Assembly (NCBI RefSeq): GCF_029870955.1
Contig: NZ_PGFQ01000001.1
Location: forward strand, 248,001 to 312,000
Length of the DNA: 64,000 nucleotides
Source of the DNA: Sulfitobacter faviae
GTDB taxonomy: Bacteria > Pseudomonadota > Alphaproteobacteria > Rhodobacterales > Rhodobacteraceae
Reading direction: 5' to 3'
This document shows positions 983 through 57,813 of this stretch, piece by piece (positions within the stretch are counted from its first letter, which is position 1; every line of letters begins with the position of its first letter). Made by a program: the position numbers and the translations under genes. The notes beneath the pieces were generated by a model. The model saw only the letters and a list, made by a program, of their open reading frames with translations. It made no database searches and was not told where the DNA came from.

Positions 983-3966
983 TTACTTGTCGTCCTTCAG
1001 CCCCATCAGCGCGGCGGCAAAGGGGTTGTCAGGGTCGATCTGCTTTTCCTTGCGCGGAGGACGGGCCGAGAAGTTCTGCGACTTGCCGCCTTTGTCACCG
1101 CCGGGCTTGCGCCCCTTGCCCTTGGCAGGTTTGCCACGCGGCTTGCCCTGCCCTTGGTTGCGATCCCCGCCGCGACGGTTGCCACCGCCATTGCCACGCG
1201 GGCTCCGGGCCCATGTGAAGATGTAATAGGTCTCCATCTCCGGCCCGGCGACATCGGCGTCGGGCGCGGTGCCCTGCGGGATTTCTTCCGCTGGCACTTC
1301 GGGGATGTTGGTGTCGACCTCAGGCTCTTCGGAGGCCACATCGGCCATGGGCGCGATGCCATCGTCGGGCATCTGCGCCACATCCGCAGGGCGGTCATCG
1401 GGGTTAGTCTCATCCGAAGGGGTTTCGATGATACCGCCTGCAGGTTCATCGGCGGCGACATCCATGATCGGCTTGTCGGCCGCGTCGTCACCGGGCAGAT
1501 CGCTGTCAATTTTCTCGGGCACCACGGTATCGGCGGAGGGGGCCATCGCGTCATGGCTGCCGTCTTTGGGCATCACCACATCGACGGGTTTCACCTTGGT
1601 CCGCTCATCCTTCTCGGCCTTGTAGCCCAGACCTTCCATCAGGTCGGCGAATTGCTCAAGCGTCATGCCGGTGATCGACAGCATGTCAGGCTTGGCCTCG
1701 AACCCACCGCGCGAATCTTCGGCCCGCAGCATATCGGCGAGACGTTCCAGCATGTCGATGCGGATCGCGCGTTTGCCGGCGTTGCGGTAGCCCGACATGG
1801 TGTCGGCCCCGGCGGGTGCCTCGGCTTCAACCGGAATGGTCACCAGACCGGGAGGGGGGATTCAGGGAATTCGTTCAGCCCTTTGGCCAGCGACCAGAGC
1901 ACCAGACGCAACCGCGTCGGCGCGGGTTTGAGCATTAGCGGCATAAAGATGGTAAACTGGCCGAACCGGATGCCATGTTTGCGCAGCGCACCGCGGGCGT
2001 CTTGATCCAGCGCCTTCACATCCTCGGCCACTTGGGCGCGGGGCAGAATGCCGAAATTCTCAACCAGTTGGAAGGCAAAGCCACGGGCCAGCCCAGTCAA
2101 CGTGTCATCCTTGCTCAGCCCCAGAAGCGGCTCGAACAGGGCCGCGACCTTGCGGTCGATGAAGTGCTGGAGGCGGCGTTTCACCTTCTCGGCCACTTCA
2201 GGCCCGGCGATATCGTCGACAAAGACTTCGACCTGCGGCTTCAGCGCGTCGCTGCCAGCGGTCAGTTTGCCCACCGCAGCGCTGCCCCACATGAGGCCGC
2301 CCTGTTCGGTGAAGTCAATCTCGGTGTCCGGGGCGTTGTAGAACCGGTCGGCGCGCAGATGGAACTGCGGAGCCAAGGCCTGCAATGCGGCGGTTTTCAC
2401 CGTTTTGTCTTCAGCCGCACCCGCGCCCTTGTCCACCCGAAAGCGGAACCCGTCCAGCTTGCCTACAAATTCACCTTCAACGGTGACTTCACCGGTCTCG
2501 TTTACATCGGCCACCATGGCTTCCTTCTGTCCAAGCCGGCGCAGCAATACACTTGTGCGCCGATCTACAAATCTTTGAGTCAAACGCTCATGCAGAGCGT
2601 CCGACAAGCGGTCTTCTACGACACGCGTCGTGTCGCGCCAATGGCTTTCGTCCTTTGTCCAGCCCTTGCGCTGCGCAACGTAGGTCCATGTGCGAATAAA
2701 CGCGAGTCGTTTGGACAACGCATCAATGTCGCCATCGGTTCGATCAATTCGTTTGATTTGTCGTGCGAGCCAATCATCGGGGATATATCCGCGCTGGTGC
2801 AGATCGTTGAAAATGGTCTCGAGCAGCCCCGCATGTTCCGCATGGCTGATGCCGCGGAAATCGGGAATGCGGCAGACATCCCACAGGAGCCGCACCGAAG
2901 CGCCATCCGTGGCCCGGGCAAACACCTCATCCACCTGCGCCAGCGCCTTGAGTGCCCTCAGATCGTCGGATTCCCGCGCCCTGACCAGCCGCTCGTCTTC
3001 GGGCGGCATTTCCAAGGTCCTGATCAGGCGGTCAATGCTGCCGAATTGCAAAGCGTGGTTGCGCCAGTTGATCTTGTTCTGCGGGGTAAAGTTGTGATCC
3101 ATGATCGCGCGGGCAACGTGATCGTCCAGCGCAGGCGCGTCCCCGGTGGTGCCAAAGGTGCCAGATTTGAACCCGCGCCCTGCCCGGCCCGCGATCTGCG
3201 CCAGTTCATTCGGGGCCAAGGGCCGCATCCGCCGCCCGTCGAATTTGCTGAGCGCCGAGAAGGCCACATGATCGACGTCAAGGTTCAACCCCATGCCGAT
3301 GGCATCGGTGGCGACCAGATAGTCGACCTCTCCGTTCTGATACATCGCCACCTGCGCGTTGCGCGTGCGCGGAGAGAGTGCGCCCATAACCACCGCCGCA
3401 CCGCCCTTTTGGCGGCGGATGAGCTCGGCGATGGCATATACATTCTCAACCGAAAAGCCGACGATTGCGCTGCGCGGCTTCATCCTGCTTATCTTTTTCT
3501 GACCTGCATAGATCAATTCGCTCATCCGGTCGCGGCGCATGAAATCGACCCCCGGAACCAGCGCCGCGATGGTGCCGCGCATGGTGTCGGCCCCCATGAA
3601 CAGCGTCTCATGCAGGCCCCGCGCGCGCAGCAGACGGTCGGTAAAGACATGGCCACGCTCGGGATCGGCGCAGAGCTGGATCTCGTCGATGGCCACGAAA
3701 TCCGCACCCATCTCCTGCGGCATCGCCTCGACAGTGCACACCCAATACTGCGTGCGCGGTGGCACGATCCGCTCTTCGCCCGTGACCAGCGCCACCACCG
3801 AGGGACCGCGCGCCTTGACGATCCGGTCATATACCTCACGCGCCAAAAGCCGCAGCGGCAGGCCGATTACCCCGGTCCGATGGGCCAGCATCCGTTCGAT
3901 TGCATAGGTCGTCTTGCCGGTATTTGTCGGGCCGAGAACGGCCACGACGCGCTTGTTGCCTGCCAC
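983..3966 (-). CDS. Suv3-like DEAD/H helicase, interrupted by a one-base shift
   Basis: A superfamily 2 helicase related to mitochondrial Suv3. Walker A is GPTNTGKTT at residues 12-20, the DEIQ box is at 94-97 and motif VI (QIAGRAGRG) at 257-265. The first frame stops at 1840 after 708 residues. The C-terminal part (GYRNAGKRAIRIDMLERLAD, then a long acidic and a Gly/Arg/Lys-rich tail) continues in another frame from 1843. The shift maps to a run of six G at 1853-1858 (C on the coding strand). One extra base gives a continuous 994-residue protein with the usual domain order of this family. A GTG overlapping the TGA could re-initiate, but a homopolymer undercall is more likely. An RNA remodelling role is inferred from the family. 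Confidence 0.85.
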
Positions 3967-3981
3967 CTGTCTATCCTTGAA

Positions 3982-4539
3982 TTAAAGCTCGCGCCCGATG
4001 CCGTCCCGGCGCAGCCCTTCAAGGGCCGCGCGGGCGTCTTCGTGATGCGGGTTGAGGGCGAGCGTCTTGCGGTAAAGTGCGGCCGCGCGGCCCAGATCTC
4101 CGAACTCCTGTATCATCACGGCAAGGCCGAAGATCGCATTGTAATTGTCGGGGTTCAGCGCCAGCGTCCGCTCTAGATCATCCAGCGCGGGGCCATAGAG
4201 ATCGGCCCCGTAATAGGCCTGCGCCCGGGCATGGAACCCTTCGGCGAATCCGGGGGCGTGATCGGTCAGCGCGGTCAAATGCTCGATCGCCAAACGTGCA
4301 TCGCCATCCGCCATCGCCTCCCGCCCCCGCGTCAGCAGCAAATCCATCGCAGCCGAACCGGAGCGCTGCCAATGCGCCTCGATCTCATGGGCGATTCTGG
4401 GGGCCTCCTCCGCCGGGGCCTCGCGCAGCTTTTGCATCAGCTCGGGCGGGGCCTTCTCGGCCACGGCCATGCCCGCAAGCAACACAAAGCTACCAACTGC
4501 CGCAACGGTATGTTTGAGGTTGACGGGTATGATGCGCAT
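3982..4539 (-). CDS. secreted tetratricopeptide repeat protein
   Basis: A 185-residue protein with an N-terminal signal peptide (hydrophobic stretch at about 8-25, cleavage likely after AVAE) followed by about three TPR units. Repeats such as GPALDDLERTLALNPDN and GRAAALYRKTLALNPHH have the typical spacing and the Asn-Pro turn. The ATG at 4539 was chosen because the frame upstream is Arg-rich and unlike protein, whereas the signal peptide begins right here. It is 15 bases upstream of the helicase start on the same strand and divergent from the SCP2 gene. TPR proteins act as protein-interaction scaffolds; the partner is unknown. Confidence 0.8.
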   Translation of the reverse strand: MRIIPVNLKHTVAAVGSFVLLAGMAVAEKAPPELMQKLREAPAEEAPRIAHEIEAHWQRSGSAAMDLLLTRGREAMADGDARLAIEHLTALTDHAPGFAEGFHARAQAYYGADLYGPALDDLERTLALNPDNYNAIFGLAVMIQEFGDLGRAAALYRKTLALNPHHEDARAALEGLRRDGIGREL

Positions 4540-4613
4540 AACAAAACTGAATGTAACAGGCTGCCGCCGCAATTCCAGACGTAGCGGGGCCAAATGCCAA
4601 AAAAGGGCGAGCG

Positions 4614-4904
4614 ATGAGCGATATTGTGAACGAAGCGGTAGTGGTGCTGAACGAAAAGCTGGCCGGCAGCGATTTTGACGGCACGGCCAAGTTCGACATC
4701 GAAGGTGAAGGCACCGTGATGATGGACGAAAACGGCGCCCGCGCGGCGGACGAAGAGGCCGACGTGACGCTGAGCGCGGATGCCGAAACCTTCCAGTCCA
4801 TCCTCGAAGGCGACACCAACCCCACATCCGCATTCATGACCGGCAAGCTCAAGATCGACGGCGACATGGGCATGGCGATGAAGCTCGCCGCTGTTCTCGG
4901 CTGA
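4614..4904 (+). CDS. SCP2 sterol-binding domain protein
   Basis: A 96-residue single-domain SCP2-like protein. The whole length is the fold: an amphipathic N-terminal helix, then strands including DVTLSADAETFQSILEG and the closing motif TGKLKIDGDMGMAMKLA, which is the family signature. It likely binds a hydrophobic ligand in the cytoplasm. A purine-rich site (gggcgagcg) lies just before the ATG. Its TGA overlaps the next ATG in TGATG, so it is translationally coupled to the downstream lysophospholipase-like hydrolase, a pairing that suggests lipid handling (inference). Confidence 0.9.
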   Translation: MSDIVNEAVVVLNEKLAGSDFDGTAKFDIEGEGTVMMDENGARAADEEADVTLSADAETFQSILEGDTNPTSAFMTGKLKIDGDMGMAMKLAAVLG

Positions 4905-5851: not shown

Positions 5852-5921
5852 CCCCGCGCCTTAACCCCGCGCCCGCGTCATTTTCCTGTGCAATCGGCCC
5901 GCGCCGCCTAGATTGCTTGGG

Positions 5922-11665: not shown

Positions 11666-12225
11666 TTACCTCTCCTTTTCGACCTCTAGCAGCCAGTTCT
11701 CCTGAAGCTGGGTTTCGATCGCTTCAGGGAAATGACTGCGCACCAAGGCGATGGCTTCCGCAGCGGGCATTCCGGCCCCAATCAGCAACCATGCCGCGAT
11801 CAGCCCACTGCGCCCCGCGCCGTATTGGCAGGAAAGGGCAACCGTCTCTCCCGCCTCTAGCGCCGCCTCGAAACGCACCCGGTGTGCAGGCCATTCGGCT
11901 AGGAATCTGTCGCAAGGGACGTTGAAATCTTCGATCGGCGCGAAGGAGAGCCTTAAACCAAGAGACTGTGAAGTCTTTAAAATCAGGGGAAAAGCTCCGT
12001 CAGGAAGCTCGACCTCCTCGGTAAGAACCAACAACTCACGCGCCCCAGCCGCGCGCAGGCCTTCCAAGGTTTCCCGCATCTGTTGAGGATCGAGGTAAGC
12101 GCTGCCATCCACATGGGTCAACAGCCCCGGAAAACCCGTCATCGCCAGATGCCCGCCGCGGGGGTGGGGATAACGGCGCGTATCGAGGTCGCTTCAGGAT
12201 CGAAAAAAGGCACATCACGAGACAT
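11666..12225 (-). CDS. dual-specificity/tyrosine phosphatase-like protein, frame shifted near the N-terminus
   Basis: A cysteine phosphatase with the CX5R P-loop CQYGAGRSG (Cys133 and Arg139 in the restored protein). An uninterrupted frame gives 158 residues from 12142. A better start is the ATG at 12225: it begins MSRDVPFFDPEATSIRAV and joins the main frame if one C is added to the run of five at 12160-12164, giving IPTPRGGHLAMTGFPGL. That segment matches the usual N-terminal strand pattern of this family, and the protein becomes 186 residues. The general acid Asp may be in PIEDFNVP. The substrate is unknown. Confidence 0.75.
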
Positions 12226-15410: not shown

Positions 15411-16196
15411 TCAGCCGCGGATCGTCTTGGCGAAGGTCGAATAGATCGGCTCGTTCGCGCAGATGATCTCACCATGTTGCAGGATGTTGCGCTCAGGGCG
15501 GATCGGCTCGACAAGGCCACCGGCCTCTTTAACGATCAACATGCCCGCGGCCACATCCCAAGGCTTCAGACGACGCTCCCAGAAGCCATCGTAACGGCCC
15601 GAGGCGACATAGGCCAGATCGAGCGATGCCGCGCCCCAGCGGCGCACACCGGCGCAGACGGGCAGCAAGCGGCCCAAATCCTTGAGCGTTTCAGGCAGAT
15701 CGGCACGGCCCCCGAAAGGCAGCCCTGTGGCAAAGATCGACTCGATCATACGGTGACGGCCAGAAACCCGCAGGCGGCCTTCGTTCATCCAAGCGCCGGT
15801 GCCCTTCTCGGCAAAGAACATCTCGTCTTTGGCAGGGTCAAAAACCACACCGGCGACGATCTCGCCCTTATGCTCCAGCGCGATAGAGATGGCCCAATGC
15901 GGCAGACCGTGCAGAAAGTTCGTCGTGCCATCCAGCGGGTCGACGATCCAGCGACGGGTCGGGTCTTGGCCCTCTTCCTCGCCCCCCTCTTCGGCCAGCC
16001 AGCCATAGGTCGGGCGCGCGCCCATCAGGTCGTCTTTGATAATCTTCTCGGCGCCAATGTCGGCTTTGGTCACGAAATCGCCCGCACCCTTGACCGAGAC
16101 CTGAAGGTTCTCGACCTCGCGGAAATCCTTGACCAATGCACGCCCCGCTTTGCGTGCCGCCTTGATCATGATGTTGAGATTCGCACTGCCGATCAT
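15411..16196 (-). CDS. suhB: inositol monophosphatase family protein
   Basis: A 261-residue Mg-dependent phosphatase. The metal-binding motifs of the family are present: EEGGEEE near 69-75, DPLDGT at 86-91 and the C-terminal PWDVAAG near 215. It hydrolyses inositol phosphates or related sugar phosphates; SuhB in enterobacteria also joins rRNA antitermination complexes. The ATG at 16196 begins MIGSANLNIMIKAARKAG, the normal start of the family, whereas upstream codons are Cys/Arg-rich and unlike protein. It is convergent with the DUF6476 gene and the stops touch. Confidence 0.93.
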   Translation of the reverse strand: MIGSANLNIMIKAARKAGRALVKDFREVENLQVSVKGAGDFVTKADIGAEKIIKDDLMGARPTYGWLAEEGGEEEGQDPTRRWIVDPLDGTTNFLHGLPHWAISIALEHKGEIVAGVVFDPAKDEMFFAEKGTGAWMNEGRLRVSGRHRMIESIFATGLPFGGRADLPETLKDLGRLLPVCAGVRRWGAASLDLAYVASGRYDGFWERRLKPWDVAAGMLIVKEAGGLVEPIRPERNILQHGEIICANEPIYSTFAKTIRG

Positions 16197-20666: not shown

Positions 20667-20743
20667 TGGTACCACCTCCTGGTCTCGAACCAGGGACCTC
20701 TTGATCCACAATCAAGCGCTCTAACCAACTGAGCTAAGGCGGC
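20667..20743 (-). tRNA. tRNA-His (anticodon GUG)
   Basis: A full cloverleaf reads on the minus strand: acceptor GCCGCCT/AGGTGGT, D-loop AGCTCAGTTGGTTAGAGC, anticodon arm CTTGA-TTGTGGA-TCAAG with GTG, and T-arm CCTGG-TTCGAGA-CCAGG. CCA is encoded (20667-20669). Position 73 is A and the base before G1 is T. There is therefore no genomic G-1, and C73 is missing. This is the exceptional tRNA-His type known from a group of alphaproteobacteria. Confidence 0.95.
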
Positions 20744-21082
20744 ACTGGGGCGGATTTAGCGCCCGTGGCGGAGGAATGCAAGACCTCAAAGTCAGAAGAA
20801 ATGCCGGTTTCCGTCAGATTTTTCGCGCGCCCGGTGTCATCGGCACTCCTGCGGGAAACGCGGGTGGATGACGCGGCGATTCCGCCCGCGGTCTCCAAGC
20901 TGCGCGTCGCGGCAATCTCCCGATCCGCCAGACCGGCACCCCACCCTCTTGCAGAACGGTGATGACCCATCCGCCACCTAAGGCCAACGCGCCCCCTCTG
21001 CCCTGCGTCGCAACCCGCCAAGATATCTTGCCTTTCCGCCCATGCCGCGCTAGCGATAAGCCCCACCAAACCGGAGGCTCCC
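20744..21082. other. 339-base gap without a recognisable gene
   Basis: Between tRNA-His and the 62-residue gene I see no coding pattern on either strand; short open frames here lack a start site and family likeness. The left part must hold the tRNA-His promoter, which I could not define. Confidence 0.5.
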
Positions 21083-21271
21083 ATGGGCATCGACACCGAA
21101 CGCGACATCGAAGCAAACCTGCAAATCGGCCCGACAGACAAGGGCATGGTCCGCCTTTTCGTCGAAGGCGGCGGCGTTGAAATTCCGATGGATTTCACCC
21201 CGGAAGAAGCCCGCGAAATCGCGGAAGAGATTATGGCCGCCGCAAACCGCGCGGGCAAACAAAAGCGCTAA
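21083..21271 (+). CDS. small conserved protein, DUF6324-like
   Basis: A 62-residue soluble protein: a beta-rich first half (ANLQIGPTDKGMVRLFVEGGGVEIPMDFT) and one C-terminal helix (PEEAREIAEEIMAAANRAG). It looks like the short Rhodobacteraceae family DUF6324; that name is from memory and only moderately sure. A good ribosome site (accggagg) stands before the ATG, which supports a real gene. Function unknown. Confidence 0.75.
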   Translation: MGIDTERDIEANLQIGPTDKGMVRLFVEGGGVEIPMDFTPEEAREIAEEIMAAANRAGKQKR

Positions 21272-21898: not shown

Positions 21899-23221
21899 AT
21901 GGCACAACGCGAACCGATGAGTGAGACGCAGGCGCGCGGGGTGCGTTACGCCCGTGAATTGGAGGGCCATCTGACATGGCTCGATACATTCTCGGGCACA
22001 GCGCTTGGCGTTCTGGCCGTGGCCTCGGGCATTTACACCTATCTTGGCGTCTCGTCGCTGCTGGATGACAACGGCGCCATGTCGGCCTTTGCCGCGATCG
22101 CCTATTCGGTGGCGGTCTCGGTAGGGATTTTCGTCTTCTGGTCCTATCTGCTGAGGCTCTTCCCCGCTGTGCGCACCACGCGCGCGCGGATGGGGCTTTT
22201 GGGGGCCATGGGGCTCGGCTCCGTCGCGATCATCGCGATGTCAAGCTGGCTGAACGCCGCCGCGCTCGCCGGATCGGCGGCGGTGGAGCAGCATCTGGCC
22301 GAGACGGTGCAAGATTACCAAGGCGCGTTGGAGCGCACACACGAGATTGCCTTGTCCGCTCAAGGGCTTGAGCGGGACGTGGCGCGGGTCAGACAGAGCT
22401 TTGAGGACCTGAGCGAGCAAGAGGCGGCTGGCAGCCTGTCGGGCCTTGCGGGGCGCGGCGCGGTGTTCCGGGTGCTGCGGCAGAAATCGGCGGAACTGGG
22501 CGCGCTGGAGGCGCAGATCGCCACCCAGACCCCGCTGGTGAATGACGCCTTCGCCGAGGGGAACCAGATCCTCAGCCGGATGCGCGCCCTGACGGTAGAG
22601 CCCGGCCCGGTTCAGGCGCGCTCGGTCGAGTTTTCCGAACAGGCCGTGCGGCTTGCAGGTCTGATCACCCGGCTACGGCAGCTTTCCGTGGCCCCGCTGG
22701 TGGAACGCGCAGCGCAGGATTTGGCGGCCTCCGTCGTGCTGCCTGAGCTTGACGGCAGCAACGAAGAACAACGCGGCGCGCAAGGGGCGACAATCACCTC
22801 GGTTCTTGAGGTGCTGGCACAGCGTGCAGCGACATTGGAGCGCGCGGCGCAGGATGTGCAGGCCATGCCACCCGCTGCCGACACGACCTATACGCCGATC
22901 TCCAGCGCCGATGCGGTGATCCTCTACGCGCGCAATTTCGTGCCCTCCTGGGCCGGGGCCATCGCGATTGACCTGTTGCCCGCCGTTCTGGTGCTGATCC
23001 TCTCCATCACACAAGGGGCGATCCGCTCCGGCCGTGAAGGGGCCGCGGTCGAAGACACGCTGACCCTTGCAGAACTGCGCGCCGCGCTGGCCGCCGTGCG
23101 TGATGTTGATGTGGCGATGCAGGAAAGCCCCGCCCACAAACGCCCCGCCGCCGAAGCGCCGCGCGCGGATGCGACCGATGAACCGGCCCCCGGCCCCGTC
23201 ACATCGATCAAAAGCACATGA
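21899..23221 (+). CDS. coiled-coil membrane protein of unknown function
   Basis: A 440-residue protein I do not recognise. Three membrane helices lie at about 30-52, 63-88 and 99-122, then a long periplasmic or cytoplasmic helical region (about 128-325) with coiled-coil character rich in Ala, Glu, Gln, Arg and Leu. A fourth helix is at about 351-372 and a disordered Ala/Pro-rich tail follows. The ATG at 21899 follows gcgagggagg. Its TGA overlaps the ATG of the ClpP-like gene (ATGA), so the two are coupled. The overall shape recalls stator-like or stress-sensing membrane scaffolds, but this is only a resemblance. A LexA box lies 80 bases upstream. Confidence 0.75.
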   Translation: MAQREPMSETQARGVRYARELEGHLTWLDTFSGTALGVLAVASGIYTYLGVSSLLDDNGAMSAFAAIAYSVAVSVGIFVFWSYLLRLFPAVRTTRARMGLLGAMGLGSVAIIAMSSWLNAAALAGSAAVEQHLAETVQDYQGALERTHEIALSAQGLERDVARVRQSFEDLSEQEAAGSLSGLAGRGAVFRVLRQKSAELGALEAQIATQTPLVNDAFAEGNQILSRMRALTVEPGPVQARSVEFSEQAVRLAGLITRLRQLSVAPLVERAAQDLAASVVLPELDGSNEEQRGAQGATITSVLEVLAQRAATLERAAQDVQAMPPAADTTYTPISSADAVILYARNFVPSWAGAIAIDLLPAVLVLILSITQGAIRSGREGAAVEDTLTLAELRAALAAVRDVDVAMQESPAHKRPAAEAPRADATDEPAPGPVTSIKST

Positions 23222-23990
23222 GCGAGGAGACCCACCGGAGGCCGAAGCCCCCACCGGAAGCCGATTGTCGGGCGGGTGCTGATCGGCGTACTGATCTTTC
23301 AACTTGGCCTTGCGGTGCTGCTGTTCTGGGGGATTTGGGCGCAGGGCTGCGCCTGCCGGGCTTCGGCCCGCGCGCCCCGGAACTGACCGAGCCGATCCGC
23401 CCCGGCGACCAGACCCGGCGCTTCCGCCCGAACGCGCGCCAACCCCCGGCCAGCCGATGCCCGAGACCGCCCTGCCCGACCGGCTGGTGCTCACCCCCGT
23501 CTCGGGCGGGCGGGCGGCGCTGCTGGAAGGGGCCATCGAGGCAGGCGATGCGGAGCGGATCGTCAAACAGTTGAGCGAACTGACCCCCACGCCCGAGGAA
23601 ATCTACCTCAATTCCCCCGGCGGATCGGTCCGCGACGCTTTGGAACTGGGCCGCTATCTTCGGCGCGAAGAGCTGAACACCGCACTGCGGGAGGGGGACA
23701 TCTGCTATTCCGCCTGCCCCTATCTGCTGGCCGCCGGCGCGGCACGGGCGGTGCCCGAGAGCGCCTCGGTCGGGGTGCATCAGCATTACTTTGGCGAAAG
23801 CACGATCCTGCCCGCCTTTGTCGCCGTGGAGGACATCCAGCGCGGCCAAGGTGAGGTGATGCAATACCTCGATGATATGGGCATTGATCCGATGGTGATG
23901 CAGCATGCGCTGGTCACGCCACCCGATGAAATCTATGTGCTGCTGCCCGAAGAATTGCGCCGCTACGGCTTTATCCCCGCCGAAGATTGA
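23218..23990 (+). CDS. membrane-anchored ClpP/crotonase-fold protease-like protein, frame shifted three times in its N-terminal third
   Basis: The C-terminal domain is intact and belongs to the ClpP-like periplasmic family (COG3904 type): YLNSPGGSVRDALELG, the nucleophile segment CYSACPYLLAAGAAR and SVGVHQH. The N-terminal part runs through three frames. The start at 23218 gives MSEETHRRPKP, a membrane helix (IVGRVLIGVLIFQLGLAVLL) is in the second frame, and PELTEPIRPGDQTRRFRPN returns to the first before the catalytic frame takes over near 23440. The likely faults are C/G runs of five near 23250, 23331 and 23445. Correcting them gives one 257-residue single-pass protein. It is coupled to the upstream coiled-coil gene by ATGA. 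Confidence 0.75.
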
Positions 23991-24062: not shown

Positions 24063-24226
24063 TCGACGGGTTCTGCCCTGTTCGTGAACGTTACATTCCA
24101 GTGGCCTTAAGCAAATCCGAGGGAGCTGGCTCTGTCCGAGCCCTGGTTCGGTTACCTGGCGCCCACCTGTACATACAGGTCCTCGGGAATATAAAACAGC
24201 AGCGGCAGGCGCGGTTCCCGTCACTT
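24063..24226 (+). ncRNA. ssrS: structured non-coding RNA, candidate 6S RNA
   Basis: No protein pattern is seen between the ClpP-like gene and nusB, but paired elements nest over about 160 bases. The closing stem is GACGGG/CCCGTC (24065-24070 with 24217-24222), then CTGCC/GGCAG (24073-24077 with 24204-24208). A large bubble follows, then the stem TCCGAGG/CCTCGGG (24116-24122 with 24181-24187). Inside are hairpins GGCTC/GAGCC (24128-24142) and ACCTGT/ACAGGT (24165-24180). A closing stem, large central bubble and about 160-base length fit alphaproteobacterial 6S RNA, which inhibits the sigma-70 holoenzyme. However, ssrS usually neighbours zapA, so the identity is uncertain. Confidence 0.5.
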
Positions 24227-35228: not shown

Positions 35229-35641
35229 TCAGAAATCCCGCAACTCAATTATGCGATCCAGACAGAACTGCCGCGCATGGTGGCTGGGCAGGTTCTCTCC
35301 CGCGCGGTTGATCGTGACGGAATAGGACTGCCCCCTGTCGCCGCTCGCCCGCTCAGGATTGGTGGTGTAAACGACGCCAGTGCGGCCCACGCCGCTCACC
35401 GACGGGCCGCGGGGGTTTTGATATAAAGCCGCTCCCCGCGCGGAAGGCCCAGAACGTCCTGCGCAAACTCCGCTGCGGCGCACCAGATGTGACGCGCGCC
35501 TGCGCCGTGGTCTTCGATCACCTCGAACTCCTGCGCGGTAAGTGGCACGACGATCAGCCGGTTCTCGGCCCGGTAGGCCTGTGCGGCGGCTTGCAGCGGC
35601 AGCATAAGGCAAAGAAGGGTAAGGACAGTTTTGCGCATCAT
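35229..35641 (-). CDS. secreted protein of unknown function, frame shifted
   Basis: The N-terminal part has a signal peptide (MMRKTVLTLLCLMLPLQAAAQA) and continues as LIVVPLTAQEFEVIEDHGAGA and IWCAAAEFAQDVLGLPRGERLYI. This frame stops at 35396. A second frame carries on with PSVSGVGRTGVVYTTNPERA and a Cys-containing end (FCLDRIIELRDF). Adding one base to the G run at 35411-35415 joins them as a 137-residue protein, IKTPRGPSVSGV. Cysteines near IWC and FCLD could pair. Resembles small uncharacterised roseobacter secreted proteins. Confidence 0.65.
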
Positions 35642-35712
35642 GGGAACCTTCTTGGGATACCCCCTTGATGTAAGCGGCGCGGGCGGCAGGTCAAAGACCC
35701 GCCCCGCAAAAG

Positions 35713-35739
35713 AAAACGCGGCCACCGGGGCCGCGTTTT
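35713..35739 (-). terminator. Rho-independent terminator of rpoD
   Basis: On the minus strand AAAACGCGGCC pairs with GGCCGCGTTTT around a 5-base loop, followed by CTTTT. It is 3 bases after the rpoD stop. Confidence 0.88.
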
Positions 35740-37860: not shown

Positions 37861-39854
37861 TCATCCGCGGCCCTTTGACTTGTCATATTTAATCGCTCCC
37901 AACAGCGCGTCCAATGCGCTGCGCTCATCGCGGTCCATCGTCATGCCGTTGTCGCCCACGTCGAATTCCCCGTTGCTTTCTTCCTGTGCGCTGCGGCGGG
38001 CAAGATCGGCAGCACGGGCCGCTTCGCTCAAGCGCCAGGTGACCCCCTCATCCGCCGGGCCGCTGAGGTCTTCGACGGCTTCGGCGATCTCTTCGTTCAG
38101 CCCACGGGCGGCATCCAGTTTGGCCAGTTCCTCGGCCACGGTTAGGCGGGTCATGTCCACGTTGCCGGGATTGCGGATGCAGGGCGTGATGGCAACGTGG
38201 CGTTGCCCCTTCATATTTTCAAGTGTCTCCCAGCCGAGGGAATAGGAAATCTCCTCGCGCAGCGTCTCTTCGCCCGCATGGCCAAAGCGCAGCAGCAGAT
38301 CGCGCAGCCGCGCGTGATCAGGGTCATCGCAGCGCATCGCCTCCAACCCGGTCTCGAAGGTCTCGATCAACTGCGGACAATCGACAAGGGCCACGAGGAT
38401 CACCGCCTCGCGCAGATGCATGCCCACCTGCTCATCGCTCATCGCCACAAGGGCCGATGCTTTGGTGCTGGCCAGCGGGGCCAGCGGCGCGCCCCAAGCA
38501 GCGCCCTTGCCGCCTTTGCCCTTGCCCGACGCTTTGCCCCCGACGGGGCGGAATTCGGGCCGTTTCTTTTGCGGGCGGAACAGTTCCCACCGCAGGTCCT
38601 TGATCTCTTGCCCATAATGGCTGCGGATCGACGGGTCGCGGATCAGCTTGATCTTTTCGCGCAGGCTTTTGTCCAGCGCGGCCTTGCGTTCGGGGCTGTC
38701 GAAAACCTTGCCTTCGGTCTCACGCTGCCACAGCAGGCGCACCATGGGCAGGGCATTGTCCAAGAGCTTCTGCAAGGCCCCCGCCCCTGCGCGCGCAGCA
38801 GATCGTCGGGGTCCTGCCCCTCGGGCATGACCGCGAAACGCAGGCTCTGCCCGGCCTCCAACAGCGGTAGCGCCAGATCGATCAGCCGCAGCGCCGCGCG
38901 TTGGCCCGCCGCATCGCCATCCAGCGTGATGATCGGCTCAGGCGCGATACGCCACAACATCTGCAATTGGTTCTCGGTGATCGCGGTGCCCAAGGGGGCC
39001 ACCGCACCTTCGAACCCCGCCCCATGCAGGGCGATCACATCCATATAGCCTTCGGCCACGATCAGCGGCTGCCCCCGCCCTGCGGCGGCGCGGGCGTGTT
39101 TGACGTTATAAAGGCTGCGGCCCTTGTCGAAGAGTTCGGTCTCGGGCGAGTTGAGGTATTTCGCCTTATCCTCGGGGTCCATCGCGCGACCGCCAAAGGC
39201 AATCGCCCGGCCCCGCGCATCGCGGATCGGGAACATGATGCGCCCCCGGAACGTGTCATAGGGCTTGCCGCCTTTGGAGGAGGGTTTCGCCAGCCCCGCG
39301 CCGAGGATCAACTCATCCGCCACGCCCTTTGACTTGAGCGCATCCCAAAGCCCCTGCCAACTGTTCGGGGCGAAACCAATCTCCCAATGGGCCTGCGCCT
39401 GTTCCGACAATCCGCGCTTGGCCAGATAATCGCGCGCCGCCCCCGCCGCCCCGGTGCGCAGTTGCAGGCGGAACCATTGCACCGCTTGCTCCATCACCTC
39501 GGCCAGTTGCGTGCGCTTGTCGGCCTTTGCCTGCGCGCGGGGGTCTTGCTTCGGGATCGGCATGCCGACTTCGCGGGCGATGATCTCCACCGCTTCCATG
39601 AAGCTCACATTCTCGGTCTCGCGCACGAAAGAGATTGCATCCCCCTTCGCGTGGCAGCCAAAGCAGTAGTAGAATCCTTTGCGATCATCGACGTGAAAGC
39701 TGGCGGATTTTTCCTGATGGAAGGGGCACGGCGCCCACATGTCGCCCTTGCCCTGATTGGACTTTCGGTTGTCCCAAATGACCTTGCGCCCCACCACCTG
39801 AGACAGGCTGGCGCGGTCACGCAGTTCTTCCAAAAATCCGGGGGGCAGGCTCAT
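37861..39854 (-). CDS. dnaG: DNA primase DnaG, interrupted by a one-base shift
   Basis: The replication primase. The zinc-binding domain is at about 35-70 (CPFHQEKSASF, YYCFGCHAKGDAI), the RNA polymerase/TOPRIM domain runs from about 120, with VAEGYMDVIAL and TLDGDAAGQRAA, and the helical C-terminal DnaB-binding part follows. The first frame leaves the family at LLRAQGRG, near 38780. The second frame continues as LQKLLDNALPMVRLLW. One more C in the run at 38778-38782 restores LLRAQGRGALQKLLDN and a 664-residue protein. DnaG is essential, so an assembly error is much more likely than a true break. Confidence 0.93.
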
Positions 39855-39928
39855 GGCTTCATATACCGGCTGGGCCAGTTCAGAGTCCAGAGGAGGCGGC
39901 GCGGCAGCGGGCGGTAAAACGCCCCTTT

Positions 39929-44075: not shown

Positions 44076-45328
44076 TCAGTGCAAGTTGTGCTGAGACCCG
44101 GTGGCCTCTTCATCCATCAGGCCTTCGCCCGAACGGAACCGGTCGAGCCTGAAGCCCGCCGCCGTCTCATGGGGCTGCCCGGTGGCCATCAAATGCGCCA
44201 GCGCATAGCCCGAGGCAGGCACCGCCTTGAAGCCGCCGTAGCACCAGCCGCAGTCGACGAACAAACCCTCGGTCTCGGTCTTGTCGATGATCGGGCTGCC
44301 ATCGGGCGTCATGTCCATGATCCCACCCCAAGAGCGCAGCACGCGGGCCTTGCCGATCATCGGCATCAGGGTCATCCCCGCCTCCATCACATGTTCCATC
44401 ATCGGCAGGTTGCCGCGCTGCGCGTAGGAGGCATAGAAATCCAGATCGCCACCAAAGACCAAACCGCCCTTGTCGGACTGGCTGATATAGAAGTGCCCCA
44501 TGCCAAAGCTGATCACATGGTCGATCACGGGCTTTAACCCTTCGGAGACGAAGGCCTGCAAAACATGGCTCTCAATCGGCAGGCGCATCCCGGCCATCGC
44601 CGCCACCTGCCCCGAGCGCCCTGCCGTGACGATCGCCACCTTCTTGGCCCGGATCGCCCCGCGCGTGGTCTGCACGCCGCGCACGCGGCCGTTCTCGATG
44701 TCGATGCCGGTGACTTCGCATTGTTGGATCAGATCGACGCCGCGCTGGTCCGCGCCGCGCGCATAGCCCCAAGCCACCGCATCGTGGCGCGCGGTGCCCC
44801 CGCGCCGGTGCAGCAACCCGCCGTGGATGGGAAAGCGCCCGTTGTCGTAATCCAGATAGGGCAGCAGTTTGCGCAGGCCGTCGCGGTCGAGCAGTTCCGC
44901 ATCGTCGCCTTGGTTGATCATCGCATTGCCGCGCCGGGCCGAGGCATCGCGCTGCGCGTCGGAGTGAAACAGGGTGATCACGCCGCGCTGGCTGAACATC
45001 ACGTTATAGTTCAACTCCTCCGACAGCCCCTCCCAGAGTTTCAGCGAATGGCTGTAGAACTCGGAATTGCCGGGCAGAAAGTAATTGCCGCGCACGACGG
45101 TCGTGTTGCGCCCGACGTTCCCCCGCCGAGGTAGCCTTTTTCAAGCACCGCGATATTCGTCATGCCGTGGTTCTTGGCGAGGTAGTAAGCCGTGCTCAAC
45201 CCATGCCCGCCGCCGCCGATGATCACCGCGTCATATTCCGCTTGCGGCTCTGGATCGCGCCATTGCGCCGTCCAACCCCGATTGCCGGTCAAGCCTTCGC
45301 GCAACACCCGCAGTCCTGAAAATCGCAT
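44076..45328 (-). CDS. soxB: sarcosine oxidase beta subunit, interrupted by a one-base shift
   Basis: The FAD/FMN-bearing subunit where sarcosine is oxidised. The N-terminal frame (45328 inwards) holds the FAD site [17 protein letters not shown] and reaches EKGYLGGG. The main frame resumes as [16 protein letters not shown] and runs to the end, with [15 protein letters not shown] near the C-terminus. The shift is at the run of five C at 45120-45124; one more base gives a normal 417-residue SoxB. Since the rest of the operon is intact, a homopolymer error is likely. Confidence 0.93.
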
Positions 45329-47251: not shown

Positions 47252-48687
47252 ATGACAATGCGCGATAGCACTCACAGTTCGGAAAATCCCCCGCAGCCCC
47301 TGCCCGCGCTGCTGCGCCGCTTCGCGCGCGAAGAAGACGGGCTGGTCACGGTCTTTGCCATTCTGATGATCCTGCTGATGATCCTCATGGGGGCATCGGC
47401 GTGGACCTGATGCGCCATGAACGCGAACGCGCGAGGGTGCAGGCCGTGGCTGACCGCGCCGTGCTGGCGGCGGCGGACCTTGACCAAACGCTCAGCCCCG
47501 AGGCCGTGGCCCGCGATTATTTCGACAAGGCGGGGCTGGCCGAATATGTATCCAGCGTGACGGTCGACGAAGGGTTGAACTACCGCCGCGTCACCGTCGA
47601 TGCCTCGCGCACGCTCAACACGATGTTCATGAGCAAGTTCGGCCAAGACCGGCTGCATGTCCCTGCCAAATCCACGGCGGAGGAAAAGGTGAACAAGGTC
47701 GAGATTTCCATGGTGCTCGATATCTCCGGCTCCATGCGGGAGAACGGCAAAATGGCCAACCTCCATGACGCGAGCGATGCCTTCATCGACACCGTGCTGA
47801 AGCCCGAAAACGCGGACCTGATCTCAATCTCCGTCGTGCCCTATACCGCGCAGGTCAACGTCGGGAAGGACATCATGGATGAGTTGAACGTCACCCAGCT
47901 GCATTCCTTCTCCCATTGCGTTGATTTCGACGACAGCGAGTTTGACCTCACCGCCATCAGCCAGACCCGCAGCTATGAGCATATGCAGCACTTCGAGGCG
48001 GGCTATAGCTGGAACGGTTATCACCGCGACAACACCGGCCGTTATGACAACATCTACAACCCCGGCTGCCCGAAGCAGGATTACGAAGAAGTCGCGCCCT
48101 ATTCGCAGAACGCCGCCGCGCTGAAAGCCCGGATTTCCAATTTCCAGCCCCGCGCGAACACCGCCATTCATCTGGGCATGAAATGGGGCGTGGCGCTGCT
48201 CGACCCGTCCTTCCGCGCGATCAATCAAGCCATCGGCGGCGATGCGGCTTTCCAAGGGCGCCCGGCTGACTACGGCGATATCGACACGCTGAAAACGGTG
48301 ATCCTGATGACCGACGGGGTGAACGTGACCACCCGCCGGATCAACCGCCAAGTCTATGCCAACCGGGACCACTACCGCCATTGGAGCGATTACCCCTTCT
48401 ACTGGTGGCTGAACCGCAATGTCCGCTCAAGCGAGCGTCACCGCTGGTATTGGACGAAATACAGCGCATCGCAGGCCGATACCCTGCTCGACAACATCTG
48501 CGATGCGGCCAAGGCCAAGGGCATCGTAATCTGGTCGATCGGCTTTGAAGTGACCGACCATGGTGCATCGGTGATGAAGAACTGCGCCTCCTCCGACAGC
48601 CATTTCTTCCGCGTCGAAGGGGTGGAAATCGTCAGCGCATTCGAGGCCATCGCCCGCCAGATCAACCAGTTGAGGCTGACGCAATGA
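47252..48687 (+). CDS. TadG-like VWA-domain protein with pseudopilin N-terminus, interrupted by a one-base shift
   Basis: The N-terminus (REEDGLVTVFAILMILLMILM) is the TadE/TadG-type membrane segment that follows a charged EEDG motif. The frame then stops at 47410. The rest continues from VDLMRHERERARVQAVADRAVLAA in another frame. Adding one G to 47389-47393 gives MGGIGVDLMRHE and a 478-residue protein. A VWA domain follows with the MIDAS signature VLDISGSM. The C-terminus ends ARQINQLRLTQ. It overlaps the next gene by four bases (ATGA). It probably belongs to a Tad-type surface system. Confidence 0.85.
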
Positions 48688-50916: not shown

Positions 50917-51279
50917 TCAACTTTCCTCCATGTCCCAGCCAAATCCACCGAATTCGCTGCCCGTGTCAGCCGCCGTGAGGTCCGAGGTCTCGGTCTCCCA
51001 TGTGCCGGTCACGAACTGCCCGGCCAAATCCGGCATGCCCTCGGGCGGTGCCACGCCGACCCAAACCCCGACAGCCGCGGCAGTGGCAAGACCGCTCAGC
51101 CCCGCCGCACCGCCCAAAAGTTGCCAGAGCGCTTGATGCCACGGCTGGCGCGGCGCTTTGGGCATATGCGCTTCGGCATCGGCCAGAACGCGCGCCTGCA
51201 AACCGGCCGAGACCTGTGGCGGATTGGCCCGTGCTGCGGCAAAGAAATCTTCCAGATCGTCGACGTCACTCATTTTCAA
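50917..51279 (-). CDS. anti-sigma-like single-pass membrane protein
   Basis: A 120-residue protein: a short helical cytoplasmic domain (DDLEDFFAAARANPPQVSAGLQARVLADAEA), one membrane helix (about 55-75, GGAAGLSGLATAAAVGVWVGV) and an acidic periplasmic tail with FGGFGWDMEES. Placement directly after the sigma gene, overlapping its stop, suggests it holds the sigma factor at the membrane. No ZAS zinc motif is seen, so the anti-sigma role is inference. A second ATG at 51273 is also possible. Confidence 0.75.
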   Translation of the reverse strand: MKMSDVDDLEDFFAAARANPPQVSAGLQARVLADAEAHMPKAPRQPWHQALWQLLGGAAGLSGLATAAAVGVWVGVAPPEGMPDLAGQFVTGTWETETSDLTAADTGSEFGGFGWDMEES

Positions 51280-51861
51280 ACCCCAATGCGTCCCGTTGTG
51301 CCGACAGTTGCGCGGCCAATGCCCGTTTGCCCCGCGCGGTCAGGCTTTCCACCGCTTCGACCCCGATGCCCAGCACCTCGGCGATCTCGGGATTGGCCAT
51401 ACCGTCGATATGGCGCAACACCACCGCTTGCCGCTGGCGGTCGGGCAAAGTGGCCAGCGCCTGTTGCAGCGCGTCCACACGGGCGGCCTGCTGCATCTGC
51501 TGCGCGGCACCGGGGGTCGGATCGGCAGGTTCCGCCACATCATCGAGCCCGGACACCCCCGCCCCCGGCGGCGCAGACGATCGGTGCAGAGGTTAGCCAC
51601 GACACGGTAGAGCCAAGTGGTCACCTTGGCTTCGCCCCTGCGCCACTTCGGCGCCTGACGCCAAAGCCGCAGCATCGCCTCTTGGGCCACATCCTCGGCC
51701 TCGGCCCGGTCACCGAGCACCCGCAGCGCATGGCCGTGGAGGCGCGGCACCAGCCGCGCGGTCAGCAACCGCGCCGCCGCCGCATCGCCATTGGCATAGC
51801 GTTGCAACAACTCGGCATCCGCATCTTGCTGCGCGTTGGGCAAATCCTGCATCCCGTCCAT
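51266..51861 (-). CDS. ECF-type RNA polymerase sigma factor, interrupted by a one-base shift
   Basis: A 198-residue sigma-70 family factor. Region 2 is in the first frame (ELLQRYANGDAAAARLL, AEDVAQEAMLRLWRQAP, TTWLYRVVANLCTDRLRRR). Region 4 is in the second (DALQQALATLPDRQRQAVVLRHIDGMANPEIAEVLGIGVEAVES). The shift lies at the C runs 51556-51560 and 51562-51566; one more base yields LRRRGAGVSGLDDVAEP. It should direct a small regulon under control of the membrane protein encoded next to it. Confidence 0.87.
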
Positions 51862-53153: not shown

Positions 53154-53195
53154 GGCGGCCTGCCCTTCGGCCCCTGACTGCCGGAGCGCTACCGC

Positions 53196-53890
53196 ATGAC
53201 CATCGACAAGACCAAAATCCGCAACGCCGCCACGGTGATCGTGCTGCGCGACCGCCATGAGACCCCGCATATCCTGATGGGCCAACGCGGGGCCAAGGCG
53301 GCCTTCATGCCGAATAAATTCGTCTTTCCCGGCGGGGCGGTGGACGCGGGTGATGCCGATGTGCCCCTTGCCGCACCGGTGAACGCGCTTTGCCACGGCA
53401 GGCTCTGCGATGATGCCGAGCCGTCGCTCGCCCATGCCATCGCCGTTGCCGCCATTCGTGAACTTTGGGAAGAGACCGGTCTGGTGCTGGGCCGCAAGGG
53501 CGCATGGCAGGGGATGTGCCGCCCGACTGGCAGAGCTTTGCCGCCACGGGCCATTTGCCCGATGCCTCTGCCCTGCAATTCGTGTTTCGCGCCCTGACCC
53601 CGCCGGGCCGCCCACGCCGCTTCGACGCGCGGTTCTTTCTGGTGGATGCCGACGACATCGCCAGCGACCCCGATGATTTCGATGCCGCCTGTGATGAGCT
53701 GTCACATCTGCAATGGGTGCCGCTGAGCCGGGCGCGGTCTTTCGACATGCCCTTCATCACCGAGGTCGTATTGGCCGAGGTCGCCGCCCGGGCGCGCGAC
53801 ACCAGCCCGCCTGCCTCGGTCCCGTTTTTCAAGAACAACGACGAAGAAAGCCTGTTCCTGCGTCTGCATGGCCGCCCGATGACGGGCTAG
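53196..53890 (+). CDS. Nudix hydrolase, interrupted by a one-base shift
   Basis: The N-terminal frame carries AATVIVLRD, NKFVFPGGAVDAGD and the Nudix box end AAIRELWEETGLVLG. The frame is lost after KGAWQG near 53514. The second frame continues as DVPPDWQSFAATGHLPDAS, RFDARFFLVDAD and ends at 53890. One more G in 53511-53514 restores a 231-residue protein. Nudix enzymes cleave nucleoside diphosphate derivatives; the substrate is unknown. Its stop codon overlaps that of the convergent DMT gene in CTAG. Confidence 0.88.
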
Positions 53891-54807
53891 GTCACCAAAA
53901 CCAGCATCAGGATCGAGACCGCCAGCACCGCCATGCCAGCCCACTCCCGGCGCGAAATTCGCTCGCGAAAGAACAGGGTCGTGGCCGCGATGCTCAGCAT
54001 CAGTTCCACCTGCCCCAAGGCTTTCACATAGGCCGCGTTTTGCAAGGTGAAGGCGATGAACCAACAGAGCGACCCGCCCATCGAGGTCAGACCGATCCAA
54101 ACCGCCACCCGCCGCGCGGCCCAGACCCGGCGCATTTGCCCCGGTTCGCGCAGGCGCAGCCAAAGGGCCATGATCAGCGTCTGCATCAGCACCACCGCCG
54201 CCAGCGTCACCCCTGCCCGCAACAGCGGATCGCCCGAGGCCACGGCGAGCGAGGCGCCGCGATAACAGACCGCCGAGATCGCGAAGAGAAAACCCGAGGC
54301 GATGCCCAGCCCCGCCGCACGGTTGCGCAGATCGCTAAGGCGCAGCCCCTGCGCCTCGGCCCCGCCGGACAGAAGCAGCAGCCCCAGCACGCCAAGGGCG
54401 ATGGCCGCAAAGCCCGCGCCCGAGACGCCCTCGCCCAGCACGATCCAGCCCATCAGAACGGTCTGAATCACCTCGGTCTTCTTGAAAGTGATGCCCACGG
54501 CGAAATTGCGCTGCTTGAACAACAGCACCACGCAGACCGTCGCCATGATCTGCGCCGTGCCGCCCATCGCCCCGTACAGCCAGAAGCCCGCCCCAAGCGG
54601 CGGCACCCCCTGCCCGCTCAGCGCCAGATAGAGCGGCAGCAACAGCGCCACGAAGGGCGCGGAATAGAGAAACCGCGAAAAGGTCGCCCCGCCTGCCGAA
54701 AGCGTATCGGTCGCCAGATGTTTTTGCAGCATGAAGCGCCCGGTCTGAAAGACGGCGGCGGCGAGGGTGACGAGGATCCACAGATCGGGGGCGAAAGCAC
54801 TGTCCAT
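53887..54807 (-). CDS. DMT superfamily (EamA-type) transporter
   Basis: A 306-residue inner-membrane protein with about ten hydrophobic helices in two halves, each resembling an EamA repeat. Motifs include GGATFSRFLYSAPFVALLLPLY and GGTAQIMATVCVVLLFKQRNFAVG in the first half, and KALGQVELMLSIAATTLFFRERISRREWAGMAVLAVSI in the second. The substrate may be a metabolite or drug; unknown. Its stop overlaps the Nudix stop. Confidence 0.88.
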   Translation of the reverse strand: MDSAFAPDLWILVTLAAAVFQTGRFMLQKHLATDTLSAGGATFSRFLYSAPFVALLLPLYLALSGQGVPPLGAGFWLYGAMGGTAQIMATVCVVLLFKQRNFAVGITFKKTEVIQTVLMGWIVLGEGVSGAGFAAIALGVLGLLLLSGGAEAQGLRLSDLRNRAAGLGIASGFLFAISAVCYRGASLAVASGDPLLRAGVTLAAVVLMQTLIMALWLRLREPGQMRRVWAARRVAVWIGLTSMGGSLCWFIAFTLQNAAYVKALGQVELMLSIAATTLFFRERISRREWAGMAVLAVSILMLVLVT

Positions 54808-54847
54808 AACAGCCTATAGGCCGAAGGCGGGCGGCAGGGCCAGTGCC

Positions 54848-55396
54848 TTAGGGTCTCATCTCTAGGGCCCCGAGGTCATAGCCGTTGAAGGCCAAGATCT
54901 CCTGCGCGGCGGCGATCCGGTCCGCCCCGCCTGTCGCCTGACGGTCGAGGATCCAGCCATATCCGCCATCGGGGCTGCCGATGACCGCCGTGCGGAAGCC
55001 TTCGTCGACCCAAAGCACCCAGAAAGGCCGCTCGGCCCCGCCGACGGCGGCTCGCATCATGTAACGGCCCGGCCCCTCTGCGCTCAGCGCCCAAAGGGTG
55101 CGGGTGTTGCGGCATCCGGCGCTGTCGCAGGTCTGGCGCTGTTCGATCAGGGTCGGCCCTTCCGGCGCGAAGGTCACGGCCTTCAGGTCGGCGTCACCGG
55201 GGAATGCCGCCCGGACCTGCCACTCGCCGCCAAAACGCGCCGCGTCATAGCGGCTGGTGGCCCCGATCAAAGCCTCCGCATCGCGAAACCCGGTCTGCGC
55301 GGGCGGCGCCTCGCCGCCGCTACACGCCGCGAGGGCGCCCAACAGCAGCAACATGCCCCCCCGCCGCGCCAAATGCATCCCGAAGCGGGCCATCAA
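54848..55396 (-). CDS. lipocalin-like lipoprotein
   Basis: A 182-residue protein with a lipoprotein signal (lipobox LAAC, Cys25). The mature part resembles bacterial lipocalins: a Gly-x-Trp motif at the start (RFGGEWQVRAAFPGD), cysteines in QTCDSAGC, and the late strand GYGWILDRQATG that matches the closing motif of Blc proteins. It is probably anchored in the outer membrane and binds small hydrophobic ligands. It overlaps the aldo/keto reductase gene by four bases. Confidence 0.8.
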   Translation of the reverse strand: MMARFGMHLARRGGMLLLLGALAACSGGEAPPAQTGFRDAEALIGATSRYDAARFGGEWQVRAAFPGDADLKAVTFAPEGPTLIEQRQTCDSAGCRNTRTLWALSAEGPGRYMMRAAVGGAERPFWVLWVDEGFRTAVIGSPDGGYGWILDRQATGGADRIAAAQEILAFNGYDLGALEMRP

Positions 55397-56436
55397 TAGG
55401 GCATCGGATGGGCTTTATGCGCCGCGTCGAGATCGGCCATCACCTCATCGCTCAAGGTCAGCTCCGCCCCGCCAAGCGCCACGTCAAGCTGCTCAAGGCT
55501 GGTCGCGCCAAAGATGACCGAGCCCATGAAGGGCCGTGTCGCACACCATGCCAGCGCCATCTGCACCGGATCGAGCCCATGTTTCTCAGCTACATTGAGA
55601 TAGGCCGCGACCGCCTCAAAGGCGCGGGGGGTGACCCGACCGCCCAGATCTTCGTTCAGCGACAGGCGCGACCCGGCGGGGATCTTCCCGCCCTGATATT
55701 TCCCGGTCAGCAACCCCGCGGCCAGCGGAGAGAAGGCCAGCATGTCAATCTGCTCATTGACGCAGGTCTCGGACACATCGGTATCGGCCAGTCGGCACAT
55801 CAGCGAATATTCGTTCTGCACCGAGATCGGGCGCGGCCCGCCCACCCGTTCGGCCACGGCGGCCCATTGGGTCAGCCCCCAAGCGCTTTCGTTGCTAAGG
55901 CCGAAGGCGCGGATCGTCCCGCGTTCGACCTCACGTTGCAGCACGCCAAGCGTGTCTTCCATATGCGCAATGGTCTCGGCCCGGTTCTGGTTCGACGGGT
56001 CGTAGTGCCAATTCTTGCGGAACATATAGCTGCCGCGGTTGGGCCAGTGGAATTGATAAAGGTCGATGTAATCCGTCTGCAAGCGCTTCAGCGAACCTTC
56101 GATGGCGCCGGGGATCGTGTCGGAGGAAATCGGCGCACCCTCGCGGGCGTGCTGCATCCCCTCGCCGGAGTGTTTGCTGGCCAGAACCACCTCGTCCCGC
56201 CGCTTGTCGCGGGCGAACCACTGGCCGATGATCTCTTCCGTCCGGCCAATCGTCTCGGCGCTGATCGGGTTCACGGGGTACATCTCGGCGGTGTCGATGA
56301 AGTTGATCCCGGCCTCCAGCGCGCGGTCGATCTGCGCATGGCCCTCCTCGGCGGTGTTCTGGGTGCCCCATGTCATGGAGCCCAAACAGAAATGCGAGAC
56401 CTCGATATCGCTAGAGCCGAGCTTTTTCATCTTCAT
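55393..56436 (-). CDS. aldo/keto reductase (Tas-like)
   Basis: A 347-residue NADPH-dependent reductase. The catalytic tetrad fits Asp48 and Tyr53 (DTAEMYPV), the Lys of LASKHSGEG and the His of YQFHWPN. The C-terminal cofactor site is GATSLEQLD. The ATG at 56436 is the first of two (MKMKKLG), just after an upstream Arg/Pro-rich frame that is rejected. Homologues such as Tas act on a range of carbonyls. Confidence 0.92.
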   Translation of the reverse strand: MKMKKLGSSDIEVSHFCLGSMTWGTQNTAEEGHAQIDRALEAGINFIDTAEMYPVNPISAETIGRTEEIIGQWFARDKRRDEVVLASKHSGEGMQHAREGAPISSDTIPGAIEGSLKRLQTDYIDLYQFHWPNRGSYMFRKNWHYDPSNQNRAETIAHMEDTLGVLQREVERGTIRAFGLSNESAWGLTQWAAVAERVGGPRPISVQNEYSLMCRLADTDVSETCVNEQIDMLAFSPLAAGLLTGKYQGGKIPAGSRLSLNEDLGGRVTPRAFEAVAAYLNVAEKHGLDPVQMALAWCATRPFMGSVIFGATSLEQLDVALGGAELTLSDEVMADLDAAHKAHPMPY

Positions 56437-56590
56437 CTTTTGGTCCTCGCTTGTGTTTTGCCCGCAACCTAGCCGCCTGCCCGGCCTTCGCAAGGGCAAT
56501 TGGCCCGCGCCGATCCTAGCACCCCGACAAAAGCGCGGCCTCGGTGCTTTCGGCCTTCCGTTTGGGCAGCAATGGACGCAATCTGCGCCC

Positions 56591-57813
56591 ATGCGCCTGC
56601 TCATATCCTTCGCCGCCCTGTTCTTCTCGGTCATCCTTCTGCAACTCTCCACCGGGGGTGTGGGGCCGATCGACGTGTTGTCAGGCGCGCAGCTTGGGTT
56701 CAGCCGACAGGAAATCGGTATGCTCGGCTCGGCCCATTTTCTGGGGTTCTTCATCGGCTGCTGGTGGGCGCCTCGGTTGATGGGCAGCGTCGGCCACAGC
56801 CGCGCCTTTGCCGCCTTCACCGCCGCCGGATCAATCGGCCTGATGGCGCATATGATGGTGGTGGACCCTTACGCATGGGGGCTGATGCGTGTCGCGTCAG
56901 GCATGTGCGTGGCGGGCTGCTATACGGTGATCGAAGCATGGATGCAGGCCAAGGTCACCAATGAGACCCGCGGGCGCACCATGGGCGTTTACCGGGTGGT
57001 GGACATGAGCGGCTCGCTCGCCGCGCAGTTGATCGTGGGCGTGCTCGCCCCGGCGTCTTACGTCTCTTACAACCTGCTGGCCATCGGCTGCTGTGCTGCC
57101 CTCTTGCCGCTGACGCTGACCAAGGTCCGCCCGCCCGAAACGCCCAGCCAGCCACGGCTGCGCCCACGCCTCGCCTTTGACCGCTCACCGCTGGCGGCGG
57201 CGGGGGTCATCGTGGCCGCCGTCTCCAGCGCGTCTTTCCGCATGGTCGGGCCGATCTACGGTCAAGAAGTCGGCCTCAGCGCGCCGCAAATCGCGTGGTT
57301 CCTTGCCGCCTTCGTGCTGGGCGGTGCGCTTGCGCAATACCCCATGGGGATGCTGGCCGATAAGTTCGACCGCCGCTGGGTGCTGATCTGGCTCTCGGTC
57401 GCTGCGATGGGCGGCTGTGCGGTCACCGTGATGGGCGCGGGCTATGGCACGGCGGGGATCATGCTCTCGGCCGGGCTTTTCGGCGCCACGACCTTTCCGA
57501 TCTATTCGGTCTCTGCCGCCCATGCCCATGACTTTGCCAGTTCCGACGAGCGGGTAGAGCTTTCCGCCGCCCTGATGTTCTTTTTCGCTCTGGGTGCCAT
57601 CGGCGCGCCCTATCTCGCCTCGGTCCTGATCGACAATTTCGGCGCGGCGGCGCTTTTCGCGATGATCGCGGCGGCGCATGGGGGTTGGTGGTCTTTGGCC
57701 TTGCCCGGATGCGCGCGCGCCCCACCTTGGCCGAGCGGACGCCCTACGTCTACGCGCCACGGACCAGCTTTCTCATCGGGCGGCTCTTGGGCCGCGCGCG
57801 GGACCGCGACTGA
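56591..57813 (+). CDS. MFS transporter, interrupted by a one-base shift near the 3' end
   Basis: A major facilitator protein with about 12 helices. Landmarks are LISFAALFFSVILLQLSTGG, GLMRVASGMCVAGCYTVIEAWMQAKV and YPMGMLADKFDRRWVL between helices 8 and 9. The frame drifts after FAMIAAAHGG near 57680. One more G at 57680-57684 gives LVVFGLARMRARPTLAERTP and a stop at 57813, a 407-residue protein of normal length. Without the base the frame runs on into the spacer. The substrate is unknown. Confidence 0.87.

What the first reader, a model, noticed from the sequence alone, without database searches (positions are those of the whole stretch)
1853..57684. Ten genes share one defect: a G/C homopolymer one base short
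In the helicase, phosphatase, ClpP-like protein, a secreted protein, dnaG, soxB, the VWA/TadG-like protein, the sigma factor, a Nudix hydrolase and an MFS transporter, two overlapping frames carry complementary halves of one family member. Each break maps to a G or C run of four to six bases, near 1853, 12160, 23250/23331/23445, 35411, 38778, 45120, 47389, 51556, 53511 and 57680. In all ten the total length is one base short of a multiple of three. Adding one base gives a protein of usual length each time. Essential dnaG is among them. This points to systematic undercalling in the assembly rather than gene decay, and any published annotation of this replicon would contain false pseudogenes.
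Basis: partly seen in the sequence, partly recalled or inferred. Interest (0 to 1): 0.7.

Follow-up and report, generated by a model that had tools for sequence, protein, structure and literature searches.

The report
False gene breaks from assembly errors
Ten genes in this marine Sulfitobacter-like bacterium look broken, almost certainly only because the genome assembly drops a base in runs of G or C, so the breaks are sequencing artefacts and not biology.

Summary
At nine of the ten genes the window has exactly one base fewer than both close relatives (G003, G009); the ClpP-like gene has at least three separate shortfalls. The interpretation, systematic undercalling, is strongly supported, partly by a test that needs no relatives. 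All five contigs carry untrimmed circular overlaps, so 81,785 bases were assembled twice. The two copies differ by 17 substitutions but 226 gaps; the copy nearer its own contig edge is short in 206 of 226. On plasmid C2, named Sulfitobacter plasmids agree with the longer copy at 31 of 33 difference sites, with the shorter at one, and one could not be scored. In three chromosome stretches (254,147 coding bases), 70 own-specific one-base losses face 6 gains. The loss rate climbs with inferred G/C run length (0.07%, 0.33%, 5.9%, 28%, 57% for 3, 4, 5, 6, 7+) and largely spares A/T runs. Essential-type genes dnaG and valS are among the broken; mutS is intact. This is an ordinary genome-wide artefact, not decay or phase variation. 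Raw reads were not available, so no single site is proven.

The parts
986..3966 (-). Suv3-type helicase gene, split near 1,859 at a G run
   Evidence: Two frames cover residues 1-706 and 701-993 of the 993-aa G003 protein; one base short against 4 of 4 relatives aligned; PF22527 in the relative
11747..12225 (-). phosphatase-like gene, split near 12,161 at a G run
   Evidence: Two frames; one base short against 2 of 2 relatives aligned, the other two gave no hit; family hit PF22785 below cut-off
23218..23990 (+). ClpP-like gene with at least three shortfalls between 23,218 and 23,470
   Evidence: Net 4 bases short against G003 and G009; CLP_protease PF00574 just below cut-off in the relative
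35232..35725 (-). gene of unknown family, split near 35,411 at a G run
   Evidence: Two frames; one base short against 2 of 2 relatives with a usable alignment; no Pfam or NCBIfam hit at E 0.001
37864..39911 (-). dnaG (DNA primase), split near 38,788 at a C run
   Evidence: Two frames cover residues 3-380 and 367-685; one base short against 4 of 4 relatives; TIGR01391; found as one full-length match in 60 of 61 other same-genus genomes
44079..45328 (-). soxB, sarcosine oxidase subunit beta, split near 45,123 at a C run
   Evidence: Two frames; one base short against 4 of 4 relatives; TIGR01373
47234..48684 (+). TadG-like gene (N-terminal Tad domain), split near 47,394 at a G run
   Evidence: Two frames; one base short against 4 of 4 relatives; PF13400
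51269..51861 (-). ECF sigma factor gene, split near 51,566 at a C run
   Evidence: Two frames; one base short against G003 and G009, in-frame length difference in two more distant relatives; NF009176
53196..53887 (+). Nudix hydrolase gene, split near 53,513 at a G run
   Evidence: Two frames; one base short against 4 of 4 relatives; PF00293
56066..57856 (+). MFS transporter gene, split near its end at about 57,684 at a G run
   Evidence: One base short against 4 of 4 relatives; the scan scored it 'stop', not 'frameshift'; PF07690

Best explanation
The ten breaks are errors of a long-read-style consensus assembly that undercalls G/C homopolymers, not mutations in the organism. When the consensus was made, runs of about five or more G or C were often called one base short. 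Each such call inside a gene shifts the reading frame and splits one gene into two overlapping ORFs. Shown here: the losses, their direction, their dependence on run length and base, their spread over the chromosome, and the disagreement of the assembly with itself at the ends of all five contigs. Inferred: the sequencing platform, and that each of the ten sites taken singly is an error.
For: (1) Same DNA assembled twice: all five contigs overlap themselves end to end, in total 81,785 bases with 17 substitutions and 226 gaps, 198 of them single-base; the copy nearer its own edge is short in 206 of 226. On C2, three named Sulfitobacter plasmid stretches back the longer copy at 31 of 33 sites. 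(2) Polarised against two relatives, own-specific single-base losses in coding DNA are 30 against 3 gains, while G003 shows 6 losses/8 gains and G009 4/7; all 30 losses lie at G or C, 27 of them at runs of four or more. Two distant 100-kb chromosome stretches repeat it: 14 losses/2 gains and 24/1, against 0-3 losses and 1-5 gains in each relative. (3) Rate by inferred G/C run length: 0.07, 0.33, 5.9, 28 and 57% for 3, 4, 5, 6, 7+; for runs of 5+, 58 of 580 G/C against 1 of 178 A/T, Fisher p 3e-6; G and C equally (34 and 34). (4) dnaG is split, and valS is split twice just outside the window. dnaG is one full-length match in 60 of 61 congeners. (5) mutS is intact.
Against: The reads are not held, so no site is proven. 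The window lies 248 kb from the nearest contig edge, and edge errors also hit short runs, so edge and interior errors are not identical in kind; but among single-base differences at least 3 kb inside both copies, 34 of 41 are at G/C. At some C2 sites both copies agree and both are shorter than S. faviae (3,982; 5,570; 10,123), so the overlap test does not judge every shortfall. Runs of 8 or more G/C are not rarer here (5 against 1 and 2 in the relatives), although runs of exactly 7 are (5 against 16 and 26). Broken genes are marginally more diverged than intact ones (median identity difference to G009's value -2.0 against -0.5 points; p 0.10).
Confidence: 0.96

Rival explanations
1. The frameshifts are real: the strain is a mutator or is losing genes, and one-base deletions in G/C runs have accumulated.
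For: Deletions at homopolymers that rise with run length are also what failed mismatch repair gives (established knowledge). Broken genes are marginally more diverged (p 0.10).
Against: mutS is a full-length open frame (mutL not checked). dnaG and valS are hit, the latter twice. The same DNA assembled twice differs by 226 gaps but 17 substitutions, placed towards contig edges, which no mutational process explains.
Confidence: 0.02
2. Phase-variable tracts: the runs switch length in the population and the assembly caught off states.
For: Homopolymer tracts in genes can be phase-variable in bacteria (established knowledge).
Against: Runs of 4-6 are shorter than usual contingency tracts (recalled). 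In several sites the relatives have no uninterrupted run at the place, so no tract is conserved. The genes include dnaG and valS. Losses outnumber gains 70 to 6; switching would go both ways.
Confidence: 0.01
3. Programmed frameshifting joins the two frames during translation or transcription.
For: The two frames overlap at each break, as slippage would need.
Against: Close relatives carry the same genes in one frame, and the runs are not conserved as slippery sites. Some 70 unrelated sites in 254 kb of coding DNA is far beyond known recoding.
Confidence: 0.01

Closest known systems
Residual homopolymer indels of long-read-only bacterial assemblies (Kastor paper PMC12007338, abstract and passages seen; Polypolish paper PMC8812927, abstract and passages seen)
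   Same: Mostly one-base deletions in homopolymers, split genes, false pseudogenes; the Kastor abstract reports pseudogenes falling from 23.3 to 5.6% after correction
   Different: Here the losses are strongly confined to G/C runs; the platform of this assembly is unknown
Untrimmed circular contigs with near-identical overlapping, low-quality ends (Circlator paper PMC4699355, passages seen)
   Same: All five contigs overlap themselves and the ends are the error-richest part
   Different: Nothing essential; here the overlaps serve as a built-in test of consensus accuracy

Membership tests
Long-read consensus homopolymer undercalling | Losses far outnumber gains | tested here: met
   70 losses, 6 gains, own-specific, coding; relatives 6/8 and 4/7 in the first stretch
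Long-read consensus homopolymer undercalling | Rate rises with run length | tested here: met
   0.07 to 57% over inferred G/C lengths 3 to 7+; the length is inferred as own run plus one
Long-read consensus homopolymer undercalling | Same DNA assembled independently gives different run lengths | tested here: met
   226 gaps against 17 substitutions in 81,785 doubly assembled bases
Long-read consensus homopolymer undercalling | Indifferent to gene essentiality | tested here: met
   dnaG split, valS split twice
Long-read consensus homopolymer undercalling | Raw or short reads show the longer run | not testable with these tools
   No reads are held
Mismatch-repair mutator | Loss of mutS or mutL | tested here: not met
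   mutS matched over positions 2-839 of 840 in one open frame of 907 aa; mutL was not searched
Phase-variable tracts | Tract conserved or variable in both directions | tested here: not met
   Relatives often have interrupted runs at the sites; losses exceed gains 70 to 6
Programmed frameshifting | Slip site and two-frame layout conserved in relatives | tested here: not met
   Relatives aligned at the sites carry one more base; dnaG is one full-length match in 60 of 61 congeners

The most novel reading that the evidence does not exclude
Most breaks are errors, but one or two may be true strain-specific frameshifts, for instance in the ClpP-like gene with its several shortfalls; or the strong restriction to G/C runs reflects something about this DNA, such as base modification, that disturbs the sequencing chemistry.
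Probability: 0.06. Interest if true: 0.3.

Novelty: not a real feature. Interest (0 to 1): 0.15.

Why it matters
Gene content read from this assembly would contain many false pseudogenes. Extrapolating the 70 losses in 254,147 coding bases to the whole genome gives of the order of 900 (an extrapolation, not a count), including core genes such as dnaG and valS. That would mislead pangenome, decay and essentiality studies. The overlap test is of general use: any genome deposited with untrimmed circular overlaps carries its own measure of consensus error, with no reads and no relatives needed. G000 is one of the species representatives held by the genome search (as its tool description states), so such errors reach comparative work.

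Tried and rejected
Gene-level scan as sole evidence: its 'stop' class also appears between the two relatives (24 and 15 of 152), so I did not use it; two 'frameshift' calls in the window proved to be quirks of the G003 gene model. Identifying the strain: plasmid searches point to Sulfitobacter, with S. faviae plasmids 96-98% identical over parts of C2 and C5, but no record of this strain was listed (the tools say such records may be left out), and the papers seen (listings; passages of PMC11278168) did not identify it, so the platform stays unknown. One library search for Sulfitobacter with frameshift and pseudogenes (four papers listed) showed none about this assembly by title and abstract start. 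Divergence of broken against intact genes was inconclusive. Rows dropped before the polarised counts, indels of 1-2 bases: 30 'complex' places, 53 without a G009 alignment and 10 without a G003 alignment. One search counts 32 losses in the first stretch where one search counts 30, because of slightly different alignment and coding thresholds.

Full report
What was given. The window is G000:C1:248001-312000, from a genome of five contigs and 3.83 Mb. Its rpoD is 91% identical to that of a Sulfitobacter, and its plasmid stretches match Sulfitobacter plasmids best or among the best (S. faviae 97.5% over 17.6 kb of C2). I take it to be a marine Sulfitobacter or close kin, a genus that is not on the control lists (recalled).
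Noticed in passing
G000 contigs C1-C5, first and last 13-23 kb (e.g. L132 against L147): All five contigs carry untrimmed circular overlaps of 13-23 kb whose two copies differ by 226 gaps and 17 substitutions; contig lengths therefore overstate the replicon sizes.
   Followed up: yes
G040:C1:1901888-1903871: In another same-genus genome (five contigs) dnaG is split into three pieces, suggesting a second error-rich assembly.
   Followed up: no
window 24067-24221, + strand: 6S RNA (RF00013, 55.8 bits against a gathering score of 46.4), with tRNA genes at 20670-20743 and 62124-62207.
   Followed up: no
window coordinates 74,362 and 75,144 extrapolated, i.e. G000:C1 near 322.4 and 323.1 kb, just beyond the window: valS (valyl-tRNA synthetase) is split into three frames by two shortfalls.
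   Followed up: partly
window 16256: A further own-specific one-base shortfall at a G run near the end of the gene starting at 15,474.
   Followed up: partly
window 51011-51304 and 21010-21258: A small gene scored 'stop' here but intact in G009, and a gene matched at low coverage; neither was examined.
   Followed up: no
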